NCBI RefSeq assembly: GCF_002834145.1
Contig: NZ_PHNT01000001.1
Location: forward strand, 137,303 to 201,302
Source: Roseovarius salinarum
Lineage (GTDB): Bacteria > Pseudomonadota > Alphaproteobacteria > Rhodobacterales > Rhodobacteraceae
Direction of reading: 5' to 3'
DNA length: 64,000 bases
The notes under the pieces are model-generated. The model saw only the letters and a program-made list of their open reading frames with translations, ran no database searches and had not been told where the DNA came from. A program made the translations under genes and the position numbers. Positions 816 to 46,021 of this stretch are shown piece by piece. Each line of letters starts with the position of its first letter. The stretch's first letter is position 1.

Positions 816-1547
816 ATGCTCGATCACCCAACCCAGCAACGCCTGCGCGAGCTCAAGCTCGACGGCATGGCCGACGCCTTTGCAGACCTGCAGAGCCAGG
901 ACCAGGCCGCCGATCTGAGCCATGCCGAATGGCTCGGCTTCCTGATCGACCGAGAGGCATCCAACCGCAGCACCAAGCGCCATCAGAGCCGGATGCGGAC
1001 CGCGAAGCTGCGTCATGCCGGCGCCACCGTCGAGGACGTCGATTACCGCGCCCCGCGGCAACTCGACCGGGGCCTGTTCCGCCAACTCGCTCACGGCGAC
1101 TGGATCGGCAAGCGGCAGAACCTGATCATCACCGGCCCCTGCGGTGTCGGGAAGACCTGGCTCGCCTGCGCCCTCGGCCAGAAAGCTTGTCGCGACGGCA
1201 GCACCGTGCTCTATCACCGCCTGCCGCGACTGTTCGCCGACCTCGAACTCGCCCACGGCGACGGCCGGTTCCCCAAGCTGTTCCGGCAGCTCGTCCGCAC
1301 CGATCTGCTGATCCTGGACGACTGGGGGCCGGACCGGCTGACGGCCGCGCAACGGTGCGACCTCATGGAGATCGTCGAGGAGCGCTACGGCAACGGCTCG
1401 ATCCTCGTCACAAGCCAGCTCCCCGTCGAGGCGTGGCACGACGTCATCGGCGAGCCCACCTTCGCTGACGCCATCCTCGACCGGCTTGTTCACAACGCCC
1501 ACAGGCTGCCCCTTGACGGCCCCTCGATGCGAAAGAGCGAAATGTGA
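816..1547 (+). CDS. istB: IS21-family helper ATPase IstB
   Basis: This 243-residue AAA+ ATPase assists IstA in IS21 transposition, selecting target DNA and activating the transposase. It has the IstB N-terminal helical region, a Walker A motif GPCGVGKT at residues 107-114, a Walker B segment LLILDDWG near residue 165, and the sensor-like ILVTSQ motif further on. The length is normal for IstB or a few residues short at the C terminus, where it ends MRKSEM. The start follows a CAAGGAGA ribosome site 12 bp after istA. Because istA is truncated, the element should be immobile unless helped in trans. Confidence 0.9.
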   Translation: MLDHPTQQRLRELKLDGMADAFADLQSQDQAADLSHAEWLGFLIDREASNRSTKRHQSRMRTAKLRHAGATVEDVDYRAPRQLDRGLFRQLAHGDWIGKRQNLIITGPCGVGKTWLACALGQKACRDGSTVLYHRLPRLFADLELAHGDGRFPKLFRQLVRTDLLILDDWGPDRLTAAQRCDLMEIVEERYGNGSILVTSQLPVEAWHDVIGEPTFADAILDRLVHNAHRLPLDGPSMRKSEM

Positions 1548-1770: not shown

Positions 1771-2036
1771 CGCGAGGGCGCGGCGCAAGACAAGTCCCGA
1801 CCCTTGCGGCAACCGTGATCCTTCGGCCGTGATCGTCAAACGGTCTCGAGTCCGGCAAGTGAGCCCCACGCTCGACAAGCAGGAGCCGCCAAGGCCAAGG
1901 GAAGGGTTTGACTCGGTGTTGCATGTCGAGTAGCTTCCATATTTGAAAATGTATTTCTAAAAATGGAATACAGCTTCGAGCAATGGCGGTTGTCGGGCGG
2001 CCAGGTTCGAAGGTGCCAAGTGGGGAGGACGCGACG
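1771..2036. other. Non-coding stretch between IS remnants and B12-mutase operon
   Basis: I see no convincing gene here. The stretch holds the end of the IS21-derived DNA and then the control region of the downstream operon. An unusually AT-rich patch at 1935-1970 stands out against GC-rich surroundings and is described separately. Confidence 0.5.
1935..1968. promoter_or_regulatory. 34-bp imperfect palindrome, candidate operator/promoter of the B12-mutase operon
   Basis: The two 17-bp half sites match at 13 of 17 positions; the outer arms are TTCCAT and ATGGAA. A TTGAAA at 1943-1948 with GGAATA at 1965-1970 (16 bp spacing) could be a sigma-70-type promoter embedded in it. It is the only AT-rich patch upstream of the operon, and the operon ends with an IclR-family regulator. 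IclR proteins bind palindromes of this general kind, so it is a candidate autoregulated operator. This is inference. Confidence 0.5.
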
Positions 2037-2084
2037 ATGATGTTGGATTTCCGGGGCGGGTCGCGCCGCGTGGTCACCGCATGA
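2037..2084 (+). CDS. 15-residue leader ORF translationally coupled to the crotonase gene
   Basis: A short frame starting with two consecutive ATG codons (2037 and 2040) encodes MMLDFRGGSRRVVTA and ends at a TGA (2082-2084) that overlaps the ATG of the next gene as ATGA. A strong ribosome site, GGGGAGG at 2022-2028, lies 8 bp upstream of it, whereas the crotonase start has no good site of its own. It is likely a leader peptide that delivers ribosomes to the first structural gene. The peptide shows no recognisable family. Confidence 0.45.
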   Translation: MMLDFRGGSRRVVTA

Positions 2085-2854
2085 CGCAGCAGATCGTCAC
2101 AAGCCGGATCGAGGACGGCACGCTTCACGTCACCATTAACCGGGCAGAGAAGCGAAACCCCTTGAGCCGCGCCGTGCTGGATGAGCTTCGGCGGCTGTTC
2201 GACGCGGCGTCGACAGATGACGGCCTGTCCTGCGCGGTTCTTCGCGGCGCCGGCGACAGGACCTTTGCCTCCGGCGGCGACCTGAAGGAACTGGCCGATG
2301 TGAAGGGCGCGGCGGCCGCCTGCGAGATGGCCGAAAACGCCAAGCTCGCGCTCGCGGCCGTCCGGGCCTTCCCGGTTCCGGTGATCGCCGCACTCAACGG
2401 TGACGCGCTGGGCGGCGGGGCGGAACTGGCGATGGCCTGCGACATGCGGATCGCGGCGCCGCATGCGCGCATCGGGTTCATCCAGGGCAGGCTGGCCATT
2501 TCCTCGGCCTGGGGCGGGGGCGTCGACCTCATGCGGCTTGTCGGCCCGTCTGTGGCATTGCAACTGCTGACCCGGTCCGAGGTGCTGGACGCGCCCGCGG
2601 CGCGGCAGGTCGGCCTCGTGAACGCGGTGGGTGACGCCGACATGGCCTTCGAGGCGGCGGTCGCCGACTTCCTCGGCCCGATGCAGCGGCAATCGCCGCA
2701 CGTCATGCGCGCCTTCAAGGCCTTGGCGATGCCCCTTCGCACCGAAGGGCGCGCCACGCTCGACATGATCGAAACCGAACGCTTCGGCATGACCTGGGAG
2801 CATCCGGATCACGATGCCGCGGTCGCGAAAATTCTCAACAGGAAAGCGGGGTAG
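2081..2854 (+). CDS. Crotonase-fold acyl-CoA hydratase/decarboxylase-like protein
   Basis: This 257-residue enoyl-CoA hydratase/isomerase superfamily protein is the first structural gene of the B12-mutase operon. The oxyanion-hole segments FASGGDL (about 62-68) and GGGAELAMACD (111-121) are clear. Glu115 matches the first catalytic Glu of rat crotonase (Glu144), but the second (Glu164) aligns with Gln135 in GFIQGR. A true hydratase normally needs both, so decarboxylation (as in E. coli YgfG) or isomerisation are alternatives. The start overlaps the stop of a short leader ORF, and the mutase gene follows after 2 bp. The precise reaction cannot be read from sequence. Confidence 0.85.
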   Translation: MTQQIVTSRIEDGTLHVTINRAEKRNPLSRAVLDELRRLFDAASTDDGLSCAVLRGAGDRTFASGGDLKELADVKGAAAACEMAENAKLALAAVRAFPVPVIAALNGDALGGGAELAMACDMRIAAPHARIGFIQGRLAISSAWGGGVDLMRLVGPSVALQLLTRSEVLDAPAARQVGLVNAVGDADMAFEAAVADFLGPMQRQSPHVMRAFKALAMPLRTEGRATLDMIETERFGMTWEHPDHDAAVAKILNRKAG

Positions 2855-2856
2855 CC

Positions 2857-4497
2857 ATGACCGACATCGACACCCGCCTGGCCGGCAAGGGCGGCGCTCC
2901 GAGCCGCGCGACGAACGATCCGCTGGCGCGCACGCCGAGCGGGATCGACGTGCCCGTCACGATCACGCCGGACATGGCCGGCACCGTCGCGATCGGGGCG
3001 CCCGGCCAGTTCCCGTTCACGCGGGGCATCTTCGAGAACGGCTATCGCGGCCGCCTGTGGACGATCCGCCAGTACTCGGGCTTCGGCACGGCAGAAAGCA
3101 CCAACGCGCGCTACAAGTTCCTGCTTGATCGCGGACAGACCGGCCTTTCGGTCGCCCTGGACCTGCCGACGCAGTGCGGCTACGACCCGGTGGACCCGAT
3201 GGCCCGGTCCGAGGTCGGCAAGGTGGGTGTCTCCCTGTCGAACCTTGCCGAGGCGGAGATCCTGTTCGACGGGATCGACCTTTCGGGCATCTCCACGTCC
3301 TTCACCATCAACGGCACCGCCGCGATCGTCTATGCGATGTACCTTGCGGTGGCCGACAAGCAGGGCGTGCCGCGCGACAAGCTGACGGGCACGATCCAGA
3401 ACGACATTCTAAAGGAATACGTGGCCCGCGGCACCTGGATATTCCCGGTGCGCCAGTCGATGCGGCTGATCGCCGACAGCGTGCTTTACGCCAACGCGGA
3501 GACACCACGCTTCAACCCGATCTCGATCGCCGGCGCGCATGTGCGCGACGCGGGCGCAAACGCTGCCGAGGAGATGGGCTACACCCTCGCCAACGGGCTG
3601 GCCTATGTCGACGAGTTCAAGGCCCGTGGCGGTGACATCAACGCTTTCGCCAAGCGGCTTAGCTTCTTCTTCTACGTCCACATGGACCTGTTCGAGGAGG
3701 TCGCCAAGTTCCGCGCCGGGCGCAGGCTCTGGGCGAAGCTGCTGCGGGACCGCTACGGCGTTACGGACGAGAAGGCATTGCGCTTCCGTTTCGGCGTGGT
3801 TTGCGGCGGCTCGTCCCTGACGGCCGCCCAGCCGCAGAACAACATCGTGCGCGTGGGAATCGAAACGCTGGCCGCCGTGATGGGGGGCGCGCAGTCGGTA
3901 TTCACCTGCGCCTTCGACGAGGCCTACCAGATCCCCACGGAAACCAGCGCGGAGATCGCCCTGCGCACCCAGCAGATCGTCGCCCACGAAAGCGGCGTCG
4001 CGCGCACGGTCGATCCGTTGGGGGGCAGTTACTACACCGAGTGGCTGACCGACCGGATGGAGGAAGAGATCGCGCGTATCATGCGCGAGGTCGACGATTA
4101 CGGCGGTGTCGTGAAGGCGATCGAGGACGGTTACCTGCAAACCCGGATCGCCGAACGGGCCAAGGAACGCAAGCAGGCCACGGATTCCGGCGACCGCCCG
4201 GTCGTCGGCGTCAACGTTGGCACCCGCGAAAAGACCGAAACCGACACCGGCGAGATGTTCCACCAGGATCCCGAGACAGTCCGGCACGTCACCGACAAGT
4301 ACGAACGTGTCATGGATGGCCGCGACGCGGCCGCCGTGGAAAGCGCGCTTGCCCGCCTTCGGGCGGCCGCCCGCACCGACGACGAGAACGTCATGCCCCA
4401 CCTCGTGGAATGTTGCCACGCCTACGCGACCGTCGGCGAGATGGTCGCCGCGCTCAAGGCGGAGTGGGGCGAGTTCCAGGAACCCATAAGGTTTTGA
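2857..4497 (+). CDS. B12-dependent acyl-CoA mutase, large (substrate-binding) subunit
   Basis: This 546-residue protein is the TIM-barrel catalytic half of the methylmalonyl-CoA mutase family; the cobalamin domain is a separate gene just downstream. It would catalyse a radical carbon-skeleton 1,2-rearrangement of an acyl-CoA. By motif alignment, Tyr73 (in RQYSGFG) matches methylmalonyl-CoA mutase Tyr89, Arg191 (in VARGTW) matches Arg207, and His228 matches His244. Isobutyryl- and 2-hydroxyisobutyryl-CoA mutases instead have Phe/Ile and Gln at the first two positions. A carboxylated substrate is therefore likely. Oddly, the Tyr just before the His (Tyr243 in the reference) is Ala227, which should open the pocket. 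The C terminus continues about 60 residues past the barrel, as in other split mutases. Co-transcribed with the small subunit and MeaB. Confidence 0.9.
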   Translation: MTDIDTRLAGKGGAPSRATNDPLARTPSGIDVPVTITPDMAGTVAIGAPGQFPFTRGIFENGYRGRLWTIRQYSGFGTAESTNARYKFLLDRGQTGLSVALDLPTQCGYDPVDPMARSEVGKVGVSLSNLAEAEILFDGIDLSGISTSFTINGTAAIVYAMYLAVADKQGVPRDKLTGTIQNDILKEYVARGTWIFPVRQSMRLIADSVLYANAETPRFNPISIAGAHVRDAGANAAEEMGYTLANGLAYVDEFKARGGDINAFAKRLSFFFYVHMDLFEEVAKFRAGRRLWAKLLRDRYGVTDEKALRFRFGVVCGGSSLTAAQPQNNIVRVGIETLAAVMGGAQSVFTCAFDEAYQIPTETSAEIALRTQQIVAHESGVARTVDPLGGSYYTEWLTDRMEEEIARIMREVDDYGGVVKAIEDGYLQTRIAERAKERKQATDSGDRPVVGVNVGTREKTETDTGEMFHQDPETVRHVTDKYERVMDGRDAAAVESALARLRAAARTDDENVMPHLVECCHAYATVGEMVAALKAEWGEFQEPIRF

Positions 4498-4500
4498 GCC

Positions 4501-4896
4501 ATGCCACTGGACAAGAAGCGGATCCTCATCGCGAAACCCGGCCTCGACGGGCACGACGTGGGCGCCAAGGTCATCGCGCTCGCCCTGCGGGATGCCGGCG
4601 CCGAGGTGATCTACACCGGCCTTCGCCGCAGCCCCGAGCACATCGTGCGGATCGCGGTGGACGAGGACGTGGACATGGTCGGGCTGTCGATCCTGTCGGG
4701 CAGCCACAAGGAACTGGTGGCCGACGTGGTCTCGCGGCTGGAAAGCGAGGACGCGGGCGACATCAAGCTTTTCGTGGGCGGCACCATTCCCGACGAGGAC
4801 CATGCCGACCTGCGCGACGCCGGCGTGTCCGGCGTGTTCACCAGCGAGATGAAGATCGAGACCGTGATCGCCGAGATAGAAAGGCAGTTGTCCTGA
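4501..4896 (+). CDS. B12-dependent acyl-CoA mutase, small (cobalamin-binding) subunit
   Basis: This 131-residue protein is a complete B12-binding Rossmann domain. It carries the DxHxxG signature as D16-G-H18-D-V-G21, where His18 should replace dimethylbenzimidazole as the lower cobalt ligand. The SxL motif (S63, L65) and the GG pair at 93-94 that line the nucleotide tail are present. Its size matches the small subunits of the two-protein mutases (isobutyryl- and 2-hydroxyisobutyryl-CoA mutase). It begins 3 bp after the large-subunit stop, so stoichiometric expression is likely. Confidence 0.93.
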   Translation: MPLDKKRILIAKPGLDGHDVGAKVIALALRDAGAEVIYTGLRRSPEHIVRIAVDEDVDMVGLSILSGSHKELVADVVSRLESEDAGDIKLFVGGTIPDEDHADLRDAGVSGVFTSEMKIETVIAEIERQLS

Positions 4897-4897
4897 C

Positions 4898-6037
4898 ATG
4901 ACCGGCCCACTGAGCGGCAAGACGATACTGGAGGTCGGGCACATGCTCGCGGGGCCCTACTGCGGCATGTTGCTGGCGGACCTCGGCGCGCGGGTCATCA
5001 AGATCGAGGGGCCCGAGGGCGACATCGGCCGCACGATCAGCCCGCACGCGATCGGGGCGCACAATGCCTATTTCGCGTCGCTCAACCGTGGCAAGGAAAG
5101 TGTCGTGCTCGACCTCGCCTCGGAGGCCGGCCAGGCGGACCTGCGCCGGCTGGCGCGGCAGGCCGACGCCCTGCTGACCAACCTGCGCCCCTCCGCGATC
5201 AAGAAACTGGGGCTGACCTATGCGGCCCTGCATCGCGTGAACCCGCGGCTGGTCTGCGTGGCGCTGACGGGCTACGGGCTGGACGGTCCGTTCTCGGAAT
5301 CACCGGCCTATGATTACGTGATCCAGGCGATGACCGGGGTCATGATGCTGACCGGCGATCCCGACGGCCCGCCCGTGAAACCCGGCTACTCGGCAGTCGA
5401 CAATTCCGCCGGGATCATGGGTGCGCTGGCGCTGGTGGCCAAGATCGTCGAAGGCCGCGGCGGGCAGATGGACGTGTCGATGTACGACACGCTGCTGTCG
5501 CAGCTCAATTACGTCGCCAGCGGCTACCTCAATGCCGGGGTCAGGGCCGAGCGGATCAGGGACGGCGCGCACCCCTACATCGTGCCCGCGCAGCTTTTCG
5601 CAGCGCGCGAGGGCTACCTCGTGCTTTTCATCACGCACGACAAGTTCTGGCGCCTCTTCGCCGACGCGCTGTCGCGGCCCGACTGGCTTGACGACCCGCG
5701 CTTTGCCACGATGAAGGGACGTCAGGACAACCGCGACGTGGTGGTCGCCGCGATCGCCCGGGAACTGCGCGCCGACACCGCGGAGGCCTGGGCGGAGCGC
5801 CTCGCGCCGCTGGGGGTCGTTGCGGCGGCCGTGCAGACGCTGCCCGACGCGCTGGACGGTCCGTTGACGGCGTCGCGCGACATGGTGGTCGAGGTGCCCG
5901 TCGGGGCGAACCGGCTGCGCATGATCGGCAACCCGATCAAGGACGACGGCCACCGCGGCGAGGTCCGCCCGCCGCCGGGGCTGGGCGAACACGACGCCAT
6001 CCTGCGCGCCGGCCGCGGCGAGGAGACGGGCACGTGA
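4898..6037 (+). CDS. Class III (CaiB/BaiF, formyl-CoA transferase family) CoA-transferase
   Basis: This 379-residue family III CoA-transferase moves CoA between carboxylic acids through a mixed anhydride on an active-site Asp. Asp168 (in SAVDNSAG) aligns with the catalytic Asp169 of formyl-CoA transferase, and the N-terminal GHMLAGPYCG and KIEGPEGD motifs are typical. The length is normal. In this operon it probably activates the imported acid, with succinyl-CoA or a pathway acyl-CoA as donor, before the mutase acts. The donor and acceptor cannot be deduced. Its stop overlaps the next start as GTGA. Confidence 0.88.
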   Translation: MTGPLSGKTILEVGHMLAGPYCGMLLADLGARVIKIEGPEGDIGRTISPHAIGAHNAYFASLNRGKESVVLDLASEAGQADLRRLARQADALLTNLRPSAIKKLGLTYAALHRVNPRLVCVALTGYGLDGPFSESPAYDYVIQAMTGVMMLTGDPDGPPVKPGYSAVDNSAGIMGALALVAKIVEGRGGQMDVSMYDTLLSQLNYVASGYLNAGVRAERIRDGAHPYIVPAQLFAAREGYLVLFITHDKFWRLFADALSRPDWLDDPRFATMKGRQDNRDVVVAAIARELRADTAEAWAERLAPLGVVAAAVQTLPDALDGPLTASRDMVVEVPVGANRLRMIGNPIKDDGHRGEVRPPPGLGEHDAILRAGRGEETGT

Positions 6038-6912
6038 CCGCGCCGCGGCCACGCCGGCGCATCTCGCGCGAACTGACGCGGATCGCCAACGCGCCCGTCG
6101 ACAGCGTTCTGGCGGAAATCGGCGACAGCGCGCCGGCCAGCCGCCCGCGGATCGGCGTGACCGGCCCGCCCGGCGCGGGCAAGTCGACCCTGATCAACAC
6201 TCTTGCCGCGCACCGGATCGGTGCGAACCTTTGCGACACGATGGCGGTCCTCGCGATCGATCCCTCCAGCCCCGTCAGCGGGGGCTCGATACTCGGCGAC
6301 CGCATCCGGATGGACCGCATCGCCGACCTGCCGGGCCTCTTCATCCGCTCGCTGTCCAGTCGCGGCGCCCGCAACGGGTTGTGCGACAACATCGTCGACC
6401 TGCTGGTGGCGCTGGAACGTCACGCCTTCGACGAGATCGTGCTGGAAACCGTCGGTACTGGCCAGTCCGAGGTTGAGGTCGCGGAGCTGGTCGACACCAC
6501 CGTCCTGATCGTGCCGCCCGACGCCGGGGACAGCGTGCAGACGATGAAATCCGGGATCCTGGAGGTCGCTGACATCATCGCCGTCACCAAGGCCGATATG
6601 CCCGGTGCCGCGCGCATGGCCGCCGATATCGGCACCATCCTGCGGGCCCGCGGCGACTGGATGCCGCCGGTTGTCGAAACCCGGGGGGACGGCACCGGCG
6701 TCCCCCGGCTGAGTGACGAGATCGACCGGCACCGTGCGTGGCTGGCCGAGGCGCGGCCACACGCGGTCTCGAACGCGCGCCGCAGGCGATACCACCTGCG
6801 CGCCCTGATCGCCCGGCAGGCAGAAGAGGCCCTGTCAGGCGACCGCCACCTGGCCGAAGGCGCACTGGCGGACGCCTACGAGAAGCTGACGCGCAAACTC
6901 GGCGTCGGCTGA
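6034..6912 (+). CDS. meaB: MeaB/ArgK-type GTPase chaperone of the B12 mutase
   Basis: This 292-residue SIMIBI G-protein loads and protects the adenosylcobalamin cofactor of acyl-CoA mutases. It has a P-loop GPPGAGKST at residues 44-52, the AIDPSSP switch segment, an ETVGTGQSE motif and a TKAD base-recognition motif. It is somewhat shorter than typical MeaB (about 330 residues), mainly at the N terminus. The GTG start overlaps the CoA-transferase stop by 4 bp, indicating coupling. Its presence in the operon supports an adenosylcobalamin-dependent mutase. Confidence 0.9.
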   Translation: MTAPRPRRRISRELTRIANAPVDSVLAEIGDSAPASRPRIGVTGPPGAGKSTLINTLAAHRIGANLCDTMAVLAIDPSSPVSGGSILGDRIRMDRIADLPGLFIRSLSSRGARNGLCDNIVDLLVALERHAFDEIVLETVGTGQSEVEVAELVDTTVLIVPPDAGDSVQTMKSGILEVADIIAVTKADMPGAARMAADIGTILRARGDWMPPVVETRGDGTGVPRLSDEIDRHRAWLAEARPHAVSNARRRRYHLRALIARQAEEALSGDRHLAEGALADAYEKLTRKLGVG

Positions 6913-6936
6913 ATTCAACCAAAGGGAGGAGACACC

Positions 6937-7911
6937 ATGAAAACCATCAAGACAACCGGACTGGGGGCCGCGATCGCGGCCTGCCTGGCCTTCACAGGCG
7001 CCCATGCCCAGGAGCGCCTGACCATGGGCGCGACGCACAGCGCATCGTCGTTCTATGCCTACCAGGTCGGGATCGCCAACTTCCTCAACACCGCGGTCGA
7101 TGGCATCGACGTCAACGTGCGCGAACTCGGCGGTGCCGAAGTCTCGACCGAGGCGCTGCTGCGCAACGAGGTCGACATGGGCATCTCGGTCACGTCGTCC
7201 GACCACGGCGCCGTGCAGGGCGAGGCACCTTTCCGCGAACCGGCGGACAACCTGCGCACGCTCTACTTCTTCGCGCCGCTGCCGCTCAACTTCGTGGTGG
7301 CGTCGGGCAGCGGCATCGAAACCGTCAGCGACCTCGAGGGCGAGGCGTTCAACCCCGGCGGCCGCGGCACCTCGACCGAGGGACAGGTGGACAAGGTGTT
7401 CGAAACCATCGGCATCAGCCCCGATCTCGCGCGCGCCGAGGGCAGCGATGCGCTGGACGCCTTCCAGAACCGCCAGATCGTCGGTTTCGTCAAGGGCGGG
7501 ATCAATCCGGACGGATACATCGAACAGGCCGCGTCGTCGCGCGACATACGCGTGCTGTCGCTGACCGAGGAGCAGCGCGACGCGGTGACCGGGGCCTACC
7601 CGTTCTTCAGCAGCGCGCAGACCAACCCCGACGAATTCTACGGCGACAGCGGCGGGCCGGTGGACACCGTTCAAACCGCCATCGGCATCAACACCACCTC
7701 GGCCCTGCCCGAGCAGATCGCCTATGACATCGCCAAGGCGATCTTTTCCGAGGCGGGCAAGACGGCGGCCTCCGAGGTCTACAAGCCGGCCGCCGGGATC
7801 GACGCCGCGCAGCTGACCATCGACGCCGCCGTCGCGCCGCTGCATTCGGGCGTGGTTCGCTACCTCGAGGAAGAGGGGTACACGGTGCCCGGCGCCGTGA
7901 CCGTCGAGTGA
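6937..7911 (+). CDS. TAXI-family TRAP transporter substrate-binding protein
   Basis: This 324-residue periplasmic protein has a Sec signal peptide with predicted cleavage after AHA (residue 24). The LTMGATHSASSFYAYQVGIA segment is typical of TAXI binding proteins, which feed fused-permease TRAP transporters. It follows the GTPase gene after 24 bp with a strong AAAGGGAGG ribosome site and is followed 4 bp later by the permease. It should capture the acid that the operon catabolises. Characterised TAXI ligands are mostly carboxylates, which fits, but the exact ligand is unknown. Confidence 0.88.
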   Translation: MKTIKTTGLGAAIAACLAFTGAHAQERLTMGATHSASSFYAYQVGIANFLNTAVDGIDVNVRELGGAEVSTEALLRNEVDMGISVTSSDHGAVQGEAPFREPADNLRTLYFFAPLPLNFVVASGSGIETVSDLEGEAFNPGGRGTSTEGQVDKVFETIGISPDLARAEGSDALDAFQNRQIVGFVKGGINPDGYIEQAASSRDIRVLSLTEEQRDAVTGAYPFFSSAQTNPDEFYGDSGGPVDTVQTAIGINTTSALPEQIAYDIAKAIFSEAGKTAASEVYKPAAGIDAAQLTIDAAVAPLHSGVVRYLEEEGYTVPGAVTVE

Positions 7912-7915
7912 CCCG

Positions 7916-9859
7916 ATGACCGAGACGACCCGGGATACCGCCACGTCCGGCGCCGGGGGGCGCGCACCAATGCCGCGTGCCCTGGTGACGCCGCGCTACC
8001 TGCTGCCGGTCGCGGTGGCCTGGGTCGTCTTTCACCTTGTCGCCGCCGGCTCGGGGCTGATCGGCAGCCACGTGCTGCGAAGCGTGCACCTGTGCGGGGC
8101 GATCGTGCTGACGGTTCTGTTCCAGCCGCTGCGGCCCGCCCTGCGGGCGGTGGACTGGGCCATCATCGCCACGGCCGTCACGGCCGGTGGCTATCTCGTC
8201 GTGCACAGCGACGCCATCCTGATGTCCAACTGGTTCATCAATCCCGCCGTCGAAAAGGCGCTGAGCGGCGCGCTCTTCCTGGCGCTGATGGAATGCATCC
8301 GCCGCGCGCTGGGATGGGTCTTCGTCGGGCTGGTGCTGGTGTTCCTGGCCTACGCGGTCCTTGGCCCCTACATCCCCGGCGTCCTGGGGCATCGCGGCCT
8401 GACCGCGGACCGGCTGCTGTTCAGCTTCTACCTCGGGGCGCAGGGCGTGACTGGGATGCTGGTGGGGATCTCCGCAAGCGTGGTCGCGCTGTTCCTGATC
8501 TTCGGCGAGCTGCTGAATACCAGCGGCGCGGGCCAGACCTTCCTGAACATCGCGCTGCGCATCGGTGGCCGGCTGCGCGGGGGCGCCGGCATGGTCGCGG
8601 TGATCGGCAGCGCGTTCATGGGCATGATCAACGGTTCGGCGGTGGCGAACGTCGCCAGCACCGGGGTGCTGACGATCCCGCTGATGCGCCGCCTGGGTTT
8701 TTCCCGCAACCTTTCCGGCGCGATCGAGTCGGTGGCCTCCACCGGCGGGCAGTTCATGCCGCCGATCATGGGGCCCGGCGCCTTCCTGATGGCCGAGCTT
8801 CTGGGCATTTCCTATCTCGATGTCGCGACGGCCGCGCTGATCCCGTCCACCCTGTTCTACATCGGGCTGCTCTTCGCGGTCTGGCTTTTCGCGGGCAAGA
8901 ACGGCCTGCAACCCATCCCCAGCGAGATGATCCCGGAGCGGCGGGTCGCCTATGCGCCGAGGGCCGTGCTGGTGCTGATCGTGCCGATCGGCGTGCTCGT
9001 CGGGCTGGTCATCGCGCGGTTCACCGTCCAGTACGCCGTGCTTTGGGCGATCGTCCTGGCGCTGCTCCTGTTCGTCATCGGCCAGCTTTCCACGCTCCGC
9101 GAGGCGGGCGGGATGCGCCGCGCGCTGGCGGAAACCGGGCGCGGGATCGGCATGATGTCGGACCAGGCGGCACGCAACGTGGCCTATGTCGGGATGATCA
9201 TCGCGGCGGCGCAGCTTGTCGTGGCGATCATCAACCTCACCGGGCTCGGGGTCACGCTGTCGCAGATCATCGTCACGCTCGGCCGCGACATGCTTGTGCT
9301 GTCGTTGATCCTGACGATGGTGGTCGCGATCATGCTGGGCATGGGCATGCCGACCCCGGCGGCCTATGCGGTCGCCGCGGCCGTGCTCGGGCCGCCGCTT
9401 GGGCGCCTCGGGCTGGAACTGATCGAGGCGCACCTGTTCATCTACTATTTCGCGTGCCTCGCGGCGATCACGCCCCCCGTCGCCGCGGCGGTGTTCGCGG
9501 CCACCGCGATCAGCCGCGGCAGGGTGCTTCCCACGGCCGGTTTCGCGATCCTGCTGTCGCTCAGCCTTTACCTCGTGCCCTATCTTTTCGTGCAGGACCC
9601 GGTCCTGCTGATGCAGGGCAGCATCGGCAGCATCGCGGTCGCCTTCGTGACCGGCGCGGCCGGCGTCGGGCTGCTCACCGTCGTCACCGTGGGGTATTTC
9701 GAGGCAGCGGTCCCGCTGGCCGTGCGCGGGGCGTGCCTTCTTGCCGCGCTGGCACTTCTGCTGCCGGACACGCTGACGGATGTGATCGGCGCGGTGGTCT
9801 TTGCCGGTCTTTTGGCCTTACATCTGCGGGCACGGCAGTCGGCCGGTGCCCGCCCCTGA
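7916..9859 (+). CDS. TRAP transporter fused 4TM/12TM permease
   Basis: This 647-residue integral membrane protein combines the small (DctQ-like) and large (DctM-like) TRAP subunits, as is usual for TAXI systems. Many hydrophobic helices are visible. The central SAFMGMINGSAVANVAST and GMGMPTPAAYA segments belong to the DctM core. Transport is expected to be secondary and sodium-driven by family analogy. It is the last catabolic gene before the regulator. Confidence 0.92.
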   Translation: MTETTRDTATSGAGGRAPMPRALVTPRYLLPVAVAWVVFHLVAAGSGLIGSHVLRSVHLCGAIVLTVLFQPLRPALRAVDWAIIATAVTAGGYLVVHSDAILMSNWFINPAVEKALSGALFLALMECIRRALGWVFVGLVLVFLAYAVLGPYIPGVLGHRGLTADRLLFSFYLGAQGVTGMLVGISASVVALFLIFGELLNTSGAGQTFLNIALRIGGRLRGGAGMVAVIGSAFMGMINGSAVANVASTGVLTIPLMRRLGFSRNLSGAIESVASTGGQFMPPIMGPGAFLMAELLGISYLDVATAALIPSTLFYIGLLFAVWLFAGKNGLQPIPSEMIPERRVAYAPRAVLVLIVPIGVLVGLVIARFTVQYAVLWAIVLALLLFVIGQLSTLREAGGMRRALAETGRGIGMMSDQAARNVAYVGMIIAAAQLVVAIINLTGLGVTLSQIIVTLGRDMLVLSLILTMVVAIMLGMGMPTPAAYAVAAAVLGPPLGRLGLELIEAHLFIYYFACLAAITPPVAAAVFAATAISRGRVLPTAGFAILLSLSLYLVPYLFVQDPVLLMQGSIGSIAVAFVTGAAGVGLLTVVTVGYFEAAVPLAVRGACLLAALALLLPDTLTDVIGAVVFAGLLALHLRARQSAGARP

Positions 9860-9993
9860 GGCCGCGCCACGGTGGGTAACGGCCCGCGTGACAAGACGAC
9901 GTGTTTCGGGGTATGCGCAGTGCCGATATGGCGCGCGGGCGGCGCAGGCCGCCATCGCGCCACCCATTGGGCAAGGGAAGGCGGCCGCAGGCA

Positions 9994-10737
9994 ATGAAAT
10001 TTTCAGACGCGTCTTCGACACGGGCTCTCAGGTTGTTCGAGTGTTTCGCGCAAGAGGGCACGCCCCTTTCGCTGAGCGAAATCGCCAAGCTCATGGACAC
10101 GCCGATCAGCACCTGCCACGCGCTCGTCGCCGTCCTGCGCGAGGGTGGCTACCTTTACACGAACCGCAGGACGAAAAGGTTCTACCCGACGAAGAGACTG
10201 CTCCGCCTTGCCCGGAGCATCGCCGCCGAGGATCCCATGGTATCCTACTTCGAACCGTACCTGCGCCAGCTGGGCGAAGCGACGCGCGAAACCGTGATCC
10301 TCGGCACCCGGCAGGACGACAGCGTTGTCTACCTCGACGTGATCGAGGGGCCGCAGGTCATCCGCTACAGCGCCGAACCGGGCGACATCAAGCCGCTGCA
10401 TTCCAGCGCGATCGGCAAGCTCGTGCTGGGCGAGATGCCGGACGAGGAACGGGCGAGGGTGCTGGACCGGCTCTCACTCGACAAGGTGACGGACAACACG
10501 GTCGTCGAGAAAGCGGCGCTGGACGCACAGTTGCGCGACGCACACGCGGCGGGCGTGTATCTGACCAGCGGGGAAAACGTTTCCGACGTGATGGCGGCCG
10601 CCATTCCGGTGGTCGTGTATGGTGAGCTTTTCGGCGTTGCGGTGGCGGGGCCGCGCGAGCGCATGAAAGCGGGGTACGACGCGGTTCAAGCGGCGCTCAT
10701 GCAGGTCGGGCAAGCCCTGAAAACGGATTTCGAATAG
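9994..10737 (+). CDS. IclR-family transcriptional regulator
   Basis: This 247-residue regulator has an N-terminal winged helix (residues 5-65, including LSLSEIAKLMDTPISTCH) and a C-terminal IclR effector domain with ALGKLVLG-like (SAIGKLVLGEMP) and ATR-ETVIL segments. An upstream GTG at 9901 is open, but the ATG at 9994 begins the conserved domain and has a purine-rich GGGAAGG site, so I prefer it. It lies 134 bp after the permease on the same strand and most likely controls the operon, perhaps through the palindrome at 1935-1968, with the substrate or its CoA ester as ligand. Confidence 0.88.
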   Translation: MKFSDASSTRALRLFECFAQEGTPLSLSEIAKLMDTPISTCHALVAVLREGGYLYTNRRTKRFYPTKRLLRLARSIAAEDPMVSYFEPYLRQLGEATRETVILGTRQDDSVVYLDVIEGPQVIRYSAEPGDIKPLHSSAIGKLVLGEMPDEERARVLDRLSLDKVTDNTVVEKAALDAQLRDAHAAGVYLTSGENVSDVMAAAIPVVVYGELFGVAVAGPRERMKAGYDAVQAALMQVGQALKTDFE

Positions 10738-45944: not shown

Positions 45945-46021
45945 GGCCCCGTGGCTCAACCGGATAGAGCAGCCCCCTCCTAAGGGGCAGGTTGCAGGTT
46001 CGAATCCTGCCGGGGTCGCCA
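45945..46021 (+). tRNA. tRNA-Arg (anticodon CCT)
   Basis: Complete cloverleaf: acceptor GGCCCCG/CGGGGTC, D-arm GCTCAACCGGATAGAGC, anticodon stem GCCCC/GGGGC with loop CTCCTAA giving anticodon CCT, T-arm GGTTCGAATCC, and an encoded 3' CCA. It decodes AGG. No integrase lies near it. Confidence 0.97.

What the first reader, a model, noticed from the sequence alone, without database searches (positions are those of the whole stretch)
2037..10737. Self-contained B12-mutase catabolic operon with its own importer and regulator; substrate unknown
One operon encodes a crotonase-fold protein, split B12 mutase, MeaB GTPase, CoA-transferase, TAXI-TRAP importer and IclR regulator. The first four classes are those of the E. 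coli sbm-ygfDGH operon (mutase, MeaB-like YgfD, decarboxylase YgfG, CoA-transferase YgfH), but here the CoA-transferase is of family III, the mutase is split, and uptake and regulation are added. The layout predicts: import of a carboxylic acid, CoA transfer, radical skeletal rearrangement, then decarboxylation or hydration. Methylmalonyl/succinyl-type residues in the mutase point to a dicarboxylate. I know no characterised pathway with exactly this set. That the operon is a single catabolic unit is inference from spacing and overlaps.
Basis: partly seen in the sequence, partly recalled or inferred. Interest (0 to 1): 0.78.

Follow-up and report, generated by a model that had tools for sequence, protein, structure and literature searches.

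The report
Decarboxylating B12-mutase operon for substituted succinates
A horizontally acquired operon encodes an importer, a CoA-transferase, an uncharacterised kind of vitamin-B12 mutase and a likely decarboxylase, which together probably let bacteria eat succinic acids that carry a bulky side group, by a route related to the one known from breakdown of the plant hormone auxin.

Summary
The operon is real and intact (2081-10737). It is a conserved unit: of 80 relatives, 76 keep the crotonase just upstream, 80 the small subunit, 62 the CoA-transferase, 65 MeaB; the importer type varies. The mutase is a separate clade with an invariant pocket: it keeps Tyr89/Arg207 of methylmalonyl-CoA mutase but has Met78Gly, Tyr243Ala, His328Gly, Gln330Val, Trp334Ser, His364Phe in 80 of 80. 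Its tree neighbour is a mutase of indoleacetate (iaa)-type operons, inferred to be IaaGH, phenylsuccinyl-CoA/benzylmalonyl-CoA mutase. The crotonase has lost the second catalytic Glu (Gln or His in 76 of 76), so it is probably no hydratase. Best reading: substituted succinate -> CoA ester -> mutase -> substituted malonyl-CoA -> decarboxylation -> acyl-CoA. Dicarboxylyl-CoA mutase: strong; decarboxylation: likely; bulky side group: plausible; exact substrate: unknown. The mutase is absent from 35 of 35 congeners, and the operon sits behind tRNA-Cys, integrase and IS elements.

The parts
816..1547 (+). IstB helper ATPase of an IS21-family element just upstream of the operon (context, not part of the pathway)
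   Evidence: NCBIfam NF038214, 258.6 bits over cut-off 200
1950..1972 (.). imperfect palindrome TGTATTTCTAAAAATGGAATACA upstream of the crotonase: candidate operator, weak
   Evidence: 7 of 8 arm positions complementary; a pattern modelled on it was found in 0 of 77 upstream regions of relatives
2081..2854 (+). crotonase-fold protein, proposed substituted-malonyl-CoA decarboxylase
   Evidence: Pfam ECH_1 120 bits; Glu115 kept, second catalytic Glu replaced by Gln135
2857..4497 (+). B12-dependent acyl-CoA mutase, large (catalytic) subunit
   Evidence: TIGR00641 627.2 bits over cut-off 303.8; pocket fingerprint; tree
4501..4896 (+). B12-binding small subunit of the mutase
   Evidence: TIGR00640 140.8 bits over cut-off 57.45
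4898..6037 (+). family III CoA-transferase, proposed activation of the imported dicarboxylate
   Evidence: Pfam CoA_transf_3 360.1 bits; best NCBIfam relatives are oxalate, glutarate and mesaconate CoA-transferases, all under their equivalog cut-offs; PDB relatives
6034..6912 (+). MeaB/ArgK-type GTPase, proposed chaperone of the mutase
   Evidence: Pfam MeaB 215.8 bits over cut-off 23.1; NCBIfam TIGR00750 218.4 bits, under its equivalog cut-off of 240.75
6937..7911 (+). TAXI-family TRAP solute-binding protein
   Evidence: TIGR02122 157.9 bits over cut-off 84.35
7916..9859 (+). fused TRAP transporter permease
   Evidence: TIGR02123 498.1 bits over cut-off 320.65
9901..10737 (+). IclR-family regulator, here at the 3' end; upstream of the crotonase in L004, L005, L022 and the Sulfitobacter plasmid
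   Evidence: Pfam IclR_C 97.4 bits; 54-56% identity to the IclR proteins in L004, L005, L022

Best explanation
The operon breaks down an imported dicarboxylic acid of the substituted-succinate type, R-CH(COOH)-CH2-COOH. (1) TAXI-TRAP imports it [inferred]. (2) The family III CoA-transferase makes the CoA ester, probably from succinyl-CoA [inferred; transfer between succinate and phenylsuccinyl-CoA is reported for IaaL]. (3) The split B12 mutase, kept active by MeaB, moves the thioester group so that R-CH(CO-SCoA)-CH2-COOH becomes R-CH2-CH(COOH)-CO-SCoA, a substituted malonyl-CoA [carboxylate-binding residues and kinship to an IaaGH-like mutase shown; reaction inferred]. (4) The crotonase-fold protein decarboxylates it without oxidation to R-CH2-CH2-CO-SCoA, which enters beta-oxidation [loss of the hydratase Glu shown; decarboxylation inferred]. 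(5) IclR controls the operon [inferred]. R is probably larger than methyl, possibly aryl or medium alkyl, because several large pocket residues are replaced by small ones. Odds: dicarboxylyl-CoA mutase about 0.85; decarboxylating crotonase about 0.65; bulky R about 0.55.
For: Conserved order crotonase-large-small-(CoA-transferase)-MeaB in Alpha-, Beta- and Gammaproteobacteria (by record titles); the crotonase is the tightest partner after the small subunit (76 of 80). Tyr89, Arg207, His244 kept in 80 of 80 while Met78Gly, Tyr243Ala, His328Gly, Gln330Val, Trp334Ser, His364Phe are invariant (also in the 120 best proteins, window included, with one alignment gap at 334). Family monophyletic 100/100 and sister (97/87) to a clade with the same carboxylate residues and its own losses at 328, 330, 364, 366 (six of seven rows). 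In L123 that clade's mutase sits in an operon with HyuA/HyuB, CoA ligases, molybdenum hydroxylase, family III CoA-transferase and an acyl-CoA dehydrogenase with the GGG motif reported for IaaF (PMC8360864), so it is read as IaaGH. Second catalytic Glu replaced by Gln (69) or His (7) in 76 of 76 crotonases. The host has two other mutases, of methylmalonyl-CoA and (recalled likeness) ethylmalonyl-CoA type.
Against: No substrate was tested. The sister grouping with the IaaGH-like clade carries a long-branch warning, was 90/88 in the fuller tree, and plain identity is higher to two split methylmalonyl-CoA-type mutases (49-52%) than to the IaaGH-like ones (45-46%). The IaaGH-like pocket keeps Met78 and Tyr243. 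The CoA-transferase is only 31% identical to the IaaL-like one of L123. Only 4 of the 7 IaaGH-like contexts were read, and the GGG dehydrogenase was seen in 2 of those 4. The crotonase is not a YgfG orthologue (19%), and its family profile scores the hydratase PaaF (137.1 bits) as high as the recalled ECHDC1 (136.0 bits). 18 of 80 loci lack the CoA-transferase, so the substrate can also arise inside the cell. No pocket volume or docking was computed.
Confidence: 0.5

Rival explanations
1. Small-substituent version: the substrate is 2-methylsuccinate. CoA-transferase makes methylsuccinyl-CoA, the mutase runs the ethylmalonyl-CoA mutase reaction backwards and the crotonase decarboxylates ethylmalonyl-CoA to butyryl-CoA.
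For: Tyr89 and Arg207 are shared with the host's ethylmalonyl-CoA-type mutase, as is Gly at 328. Methylsuccinate is argued to be possibly abundant in soil and has a CoA-transferase route in other bacteria (passages of PMC12290011). Ethylmalonyl-CoA decarboxylase is known in animals (abstract and passages of PMC8473548).
Against: Met78Gly, Tyr243Ala and Trp334Ser open the pocket more than a methyl group should need; the host's ethylmalonyl-CoA-type mutase keeps Tyr243. Identity to it is only 38%.
Confidence: 0.2
2. Quaternary-carbon version: the substrate carries the side group on the carbon next to the free carboxyl, or is a gem-dimethyl dicarboxylate; the mutase gives a 2-methyl-2-R-malonyl-CoA, or relieves the quaternary centre.
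For: A second, different mutase cluster lies beside the module in L061 and on the Diaphorobacter plasmid, and a more divergent one in L069; B12 mutases are known for tertiary carbons such as 2-hydroxyisobutyrate.
Against: Nothing in the window itself points to it; a second mutase was seen in these three loci only.
Confidence: 0.1
3. The crotonase is a hydratase or isomerase acting on an unsaturated dicarboxylyl-CoA before or after the mutase, so the pathway does not decarboxylate.
For: Where relatives are named they are called enoyl-CoA hydratase or hydratase/isomerase, and the best PDB matches carry such names.
Against: The second catalytic Glu is Gln or His in 76 of 76 and in the 120 best proteins, window included. 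Hydration is proposed to use both Glu residues (passages of PMC3660561).
Confidence: 0.13
4. A redundant succinate-to-propionyl-CoA cycle like E. coli sbm-ygfDGH, with methylmalonyl-CoA as the true substrate.
For: Same classes of activity and the carboxylate residues of methylmalonyl-CoA mutase.
Against: The pocket differs from methylmalonyl-CoA mutases at eight or more positions that are invariant in the family; the host has another mutase of methylmalonyl-CoA type; the crotonase is no YgfG orthologue.
Confidence: 0.05
5. Chance neighbours: genes that occur independently.
For: Importer and regulator vary between genomes.
Against: 76 of 80 loci keep crotonase, large and small subunit together.
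Confidence: 0.02

Closest known systems
IaaL - IaaGH - IaaF segment of the indoleacetate (iaa) pathway, Aromatoleum aromaticum (PMC8360864)
   Same: A CoA-transferase, a B12 mutase and then a decarboxylating enzyme; in the iaa-type operon L123 the transferase is of family III and the mutase is split, with Tyr89/Arg207 and changes at 328/330/364/366; the mutases are sisters in the tree
   Different: No hydantoinase, molybdenum hydroxylase or CoA ligase here; a crotonase-fold protein in place of the decarboxylating dehydrogenase IaaF; Met78 and Tyr243 replaced; own MeaB, TAXI-TRAP and IclR; CoA-transferase only 31% identical to that of L123
E. coli sbm-ygfDGH (scpA-argK-scpB-scpC)
   Same: Mutase, MeaB-like GTPase, crotonase-fold decarboxylase and CoA-transferase side by side
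   Different: Mutase in one chain by its coordinates (its pocket was not compared); crotonase 19% identical, and YgfG's His66 and Tyr140 not shared; CoA-transferase of another family (recalled); no importer of such an acid among the neighbours
2-hydroxyisobutyryl-CoA mutase (4r3u), with relatives in Methylibium and Xanthobacter
   Same: Split mutase plus MeaB; best PDB match, 475 bits
   Different: Ile at 89 and Gln at 207 there, Tyr and Arg here; an AMP-type ligase beside it instead of a CoA-transferase
Ethylmalonyl-CoA mutase and the MatB/ActD mutases (proposed hexylmalonyl-CoA to pentylsuccinyl-CoA; passages of PMC5719088)
   Same: Same reaction type: substituted succinyl-CoA to and from substituted malonyl-CoA

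Membership tests
B12-dependent acyl-CoA mutase superfamily | catalytic domain plus B12-binding domain over curated cut-offs | tested here: met
   TIGR00641 627.2 bits, TIGR00640 140.8 bits
methylmalonyl-CoA mutase | Tyr89 and Arg207 (roles recalled) | tested here: met
   80 of 80
methylmalonyl-CoA mutase | rest of the pocket (Met78, Tyr243, His328, Gln330, His364, Asn366) | tested here: not met
   Gly, Ala, Gly, Val, Phe in 80 of 80; at 366 Cys 71, Ala 8, Ser 1
2-hydroxyisobutyryl-CoA / isobutyryl-CoA mutase | non-polar residue at 89 and Gln at 207 | tested here: not met
   Tyr and Arg
IaaGH (phenylsuccinyl-CoA/benzylmalonyl-CoA mutase) | falls inside the IaaGH-like clade | tested here: not met
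   sister clade, 97/87, not inside
IaaGH (phenylsuccinyl-CoA/benzylmalonyl-CoA mutase) | lies in an operon with IaaF, HyuA/HyuB and Mo hydroxylase | tested here: not met
   none in the window operon
IaaGH (phenylsuccinyl-CoA/benzylmalonyl-CoA mutase) | turns over phenylsuccinyl-CoA | not testable with these tools
   needs an assay
enoyl-CoA hydratase | both catalytic Glu residues | tested here: not met
   Glu115 kept, Gln135 at the second
methylmalonyl-CoA decarboxylase YgfG | orthology; His66 and Tyr140 (residue roles recalled) | tested here: not met
   19% identity; Gly and Ser at these places
ethylmalonyl-CoA decarboxylase (ECHDC1) | closer to ECHDC1 than to hydratases | tested here: inconclusive
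family III CoA-transferase | Pfam CoA_transf_3 and a conserved Asp (identity of the catalytic Asp recalled) | tested here: met
   360.1 bits; VDNS motif conserved at 90% or more in the window and 62 homologues
MeaB | NCBIfam equivalog cut-off | tested here: not met
   TIGR00750 218.4 bits against 240.75; Pfam MeaB is over its cut-off, so the family, not the equivalog, is met
TAXI-TRAP transporter | TAXI binding protein plus fused permease over cut-off | tested here: met
   TIGR02122, TIGR02123
sbm-ygfDGH | orthologues of all four genes | tested here: not met
   crotonase not orthologous; the other three were not aligned pair by pair

The most novel reading that the evidence does not exclude
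A new class of B12-dependent mutase, specific for succinyl-CoA esters with a bulky 2-substituent, coupled to a previously unrecognised crotonase-fold decarboxylase (named enoyl-CoA hydratase where named at all), forming a mobile, widespread aerobic pathway for substituted succinates that works like the middle of the auxin pathway but ends in non-oxidative decarboxylation.
Probability: 0.45. Interest if true: 0.8.

Novelty: new variant of a known kind. Interest (0 to 1): 0.62.

Why it matters
Carbon-skeleton mutases are few, and each known one opens a class of compounds to metabolism. This clade has an invariant pocket unlike any of the mutases compared here, recurs in three classes of Proteobacteria, is named methylmalonyl-CoA mutase and enoyl-CoA hydratase in the records read (both probably wrong), and in the window comes with its own importer and activating enzyme, so substrate and reaction can be tested directly. 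Alkylsuccinates are known products of anaerobic alkane breakdown (abstract start of PMC4429370 in the listing); an aerobic route for substituted succinates would close a gap, and the mutase-decarboxylase pair could be useful for acyl-CoA synthesis.

Tried and rejected
Hydration step: rejected as main reading after the Glu check. Methylmalonyl-CoA as substrate: rejected as main reading. A shared IclR operator: a pattern modelled on the window palindrome recurred in 0 of 77 upstream regions. A TTTGTTC-N8-GAACAAA-like site, a consensus taken after seeing L068 and L041, is the best match with spacing 8 in 12 of 15 divergent iclR-crotonase gaps, but in 4 of the 15 (L006, L041, L042, L070) another stretch of the same locus scores higher; it is not a firm result, and the window was not scanned for it. 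sigma-70 promoter scan: 0 found (0.8 expected); terminators 4 (4.4 expected). B12 riboswitch: no Rfam match in the window over gathering scores except two tRNAs. Island right end: no tRNA-Cys repeat of 14 bases or more in the 64-kb window, two of 13 bases that look like chance; a search of the whole genome with the tRNA region found only itself. Substrate from the TAXI protein: PDB matches under 80 bits, no ligand inferred. Hints from neighbours (2OG oxygenase cluster in 10 of 80, TauD-like 5, RraA-like 4, the last two named by eye; amidohydrolase and class II aldolase in L089 by annotation and L077 by eye): too varied to name a substrate. Shadow ORFs of my simple gene picker (clusters c8, c22, read as antisense to the small subunit and crotonase) were not used; core counts were redone by tblastn, while the importer counts rest on the ORF clusters and may be too low. 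In one search the row L120 gave a wrong-frame ORF and is left out; L069b aligns poorly and was dropped from the second tree with L003, Diaph_2nd, L061a and L061b. Structure prediction was not run: its description returns no coordinates with which to measure the pocket. Papers on this module: none seen in searches of the held open-access library.

Full report
WHAT IS THERE. Eight intact genes on the plus strand run from 2081 to 10737 with junctions of 1-41 nt or a 4-nt overlap. Families: enoyl-CoA hydratase fold; methylmalonyl-CoA mutase N-terminal domain and separate B12-binding subunit; family III CoA-transferase; MeaB (over the Pfam cut-off, under NCBI's equivalog cut-off); TAXI binding protein; fused TRAP permease; IclR.

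CONSERVED UNIT. By tblastn, of these 80: crotonase directly upstream 76, small subunit 80, CoA-transferase 62, MeaB 65, an IclR gene nearby 49; crotonase plus small subunit plus CoA-transferase plus MeaB 51. Of the 54 loci with at least 3 kb left and 3.5 kb right: 53, 54, 41, 46, 34, and 37 for the four together. The importer varies: by ORF clusters, TAXI 10, TctC 19, DctP 6, urea/branched-chain-type ABC binding protein 6 of 80; any of these within 9 kb in 32 of the 54. Some loci have only crotonase-large-small, with or without MeaB, so the chemical core is read as mutase plus crotonase. Plasmid relatives repeat the picture: Sulfitobacter dubius pDSM109990_c has IclR-crotonase-large-small-CoA-transferase-GTPase-TAXI-TRAP; Marinobacter adds a cobalamin adenosyltransferase; Paraburkholderia has a DctP-type TRAP set; Diaphorobacter has TctC, an ABC binding protein, an isopenicillin-N-synthase-like oxygenase, ALDH and SDR, and a second, different mutase cluster nearby.

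THE MUTASE IS A CLADE OF ITS OWN. Mapped to P. shermanii numbering through 1REQ, it keeps Tyr89, Arg207 and His244, the residues that in methylmalonyl-CoA mutase hold the substrate carboxylate and thioester (roles recalled), in 80 of 80 loci. It has Gly78, Ala243, Gly328, Val330, Ser334, Phe364 in 80 of 80; at 366 Cys 71, Ala 8, Ser 1. Among the 120 best proteins, window included, the same holds, with one gap at 334 and Cys366 in 112. 2-Hydroxyisobutyryl-CoA mutase has Ile89 and Gln207. The host holds two other mutases, one of methylmalonyl-CoA type and one that I take for ethylmalonyl-CoA mutase by recalled likeness. In a tree without five long or badly aligned rows the family is 100/100 and its sister is a second clade, 97/87, with a warning about long branches; the fuller tree gave 90/88. 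Plain identity is higher to split methylmalonyl-CoA-type mutases of Ilyobacter and Acetoanaerobium (49-52%) than to that sister (45-46%), which counts against reading too much into the tree.

THE SISTER IS READ AS IaaGH. The sister mutases are in 7 of 289 alphaproteobacterial genomes at E 1e-180. I read the surroundings of 4 of the 7. HyuA/HyuB: 4 of 4 (L098, L099, L123 by Pfam; L124 from the protein starts). Molybdenum hydroxylase genes: 3 (L098, L099, L123). Family III CoA-transferase: 2 (L099, L123; the L098 contig is only 8.8 kb). Acyl-CoA dehydrogenase whose C-terminal motif is GGG instead of YEG: 2 (L123, L124). L123 further has a DctP binding protein, two CoA ligases and a thiolase, L099 an indolepyruvate ferredoxin oxidoreductase. 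PMC8360864 (abstract, introduction, start of the methods, first part of the discussion and passages seen; [quoted passage not shown] That hydantoinase-like and molybdenum enzymes belong to iaa operons, and that IaaL is of family III, is recalled. The IaaGH-like pocket has Ile328, Gly330, Ala364 and Cys366 but keeps Met78 and Tyr243 (six of seven rows; L120 gave a wrong frame).

THE CROTONASE. Against E. coli PaaF the first catalytic Glu is kept (Glu115) and the second is Gln135: Gln 69, His 7 of 76; Gln 106, His 14 of the 120 best proteins, window included. PMC3660561 (passages) proposes the two Glu residues as base and acid of hydration. YgfG also keeps the first and lacks the second, but is only 19% identical and its His66 and Tyr140 are not shared. 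A recalled ECHDC1 sequence has His at the second position and a similar local motif; by blastp it matches the window crotonase better (94.4 bits) than PaaF (80.5), but against the family profile it scores like PaaF (136.0 and 137.1 bits). So the decarboxylase assignment is inference: residue loss plus the logic that a mutase acting on a succinyl-type ester needs a decarboxylating step behind it, as in sbm-ygfDGH and with IaaF.

MECHANISM. Import [inferred], CoA transfer [inferred], thioester migration giving a substituted malonyl-CoA [residues shown, reaction inferred], decarboxylation [inferred], beta-oxidation [inferred]. A substrate that is already a malonyl-CoA would not need the mutase, which fixes the direction if the crotonase decarboxylates. 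The change of several pocket residues to smaller or apolar ones suggests a side group larger than methyl; no pocket was measured.

ORIGIN. The mutase is absent from 35 of 35 congeners at E 1e-150 and present, own genome included, in 5 of 289 genomes of the class at E 1e-200. Upstream lie tRNA-Cys, a tyrosine integrase, an rve-type (IS3-like) transposase and the IS21 IstB gene. The 3' side of tRNA-Cys looks different in the four congeners read, judged from ORF starts, and none of their proteins matches the window at 1e-15, while the neighbouring PCMT gene is in 35 of 35 genomes searched, own included. No attachment repeat was found, so that this is an island is inference and its right end is unknown; the neighbouring SbcC-like gene is itself found in only 7 of 35 (own included).

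REGULATION. In L004, L005, L022 and the Sulfitobacter plasmid IclR is upstream of the crotonase on the same strand; in the window it is at the 3' end. In 15 divergent iclR-crotonase gaps, mostly of Burkholderiales, the best TTTGTTC/GAACAAA-like repeat has spacing 8 in 12 of 15, with 9-14 of 14 matches over all 15 against local means of 7.8-9.1; in 4 of the 15 another stretch of the same locus scores higher, and the consensus was chosen after seeing two of the gaps. The window has a different palindrome at 1950-1972. IclR control is therefore inference.

VERDICT. A real, conserved, probably horizontally moving catabolic module with an uncharacterised mutase subfamily. It is a new variant of the CoA-transferase / B12 mutase / decarboxylation scheme, nearest in mutase descent to the auxin pathway. 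The substrate is open.

Noticed in passing
L102:7048-10144 and window:1-1547: tRNA-Cys, tyrosine integrase, IS3-like transposase and IS21 IstB precede the operon; the 3' side of this tRNA-Cys looks different in four congeners, perhaps an insertion hotspot
   Followed up: partly
L123:996-19161, L124, L099, L098: iaa-type (indoleacetate) operons in Alphaproteobacteria, with an IaaF-like dehydrogenase (GGG motif) in L123 and L124; L099 adds an indolepyruvate ferredoxin oxidoreductase
   Followed up: partly
L061:3569-9185 and L090:1389-5130: a second, divergent split mutase cluster (TetR, small, large, MeaB; Leu/Val at 89, Asn/Leu at 207) next to this module, with an AMP ligase and ABC importer in Diaphorobacter; a still more divergent mutase in L069; substrates unknown
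   Followed up: partly
L041:14070-18825, L090:20422-25121, L066, L067, L073: ABC binding protein, 2OG-Fe(II) oxygenase and, in most of them, aldehyde dehydrogenase and SDR beside the module in Burkholderiales; the oxygenase cluster also lies near it in Alphaproteobacteria (L010, L044, L055, L059)
   Followed up: no
L015, L039, L044, L055: genes like sulfopyruvate decarboxylase alpha/beta and a hydroxyisobutyrate-type dehydrogenase (all under the curated cut-offs) next to the module
   Followed up: no
window:10800-14551: SbcC/SbcD-like pair on the minus strand (named by eye; Pfam gives AAA_23 and Metallophos); the SbcC-like gene is in only 7 of 35 genomes of the genus search, own included, and the host has a second, 39% identical copy
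   Followed up: partly
window:15493-15566 and 45945-46018: two tRNA genes (Rfam)
   Followed up: no
L017, L029: records titled Klebsiella pneumoniae MAG carry the module with the same neighbour clusters as lake Gammaproteobacteria bins (L007, L016); the titles look mislabelled
   Followed up: no
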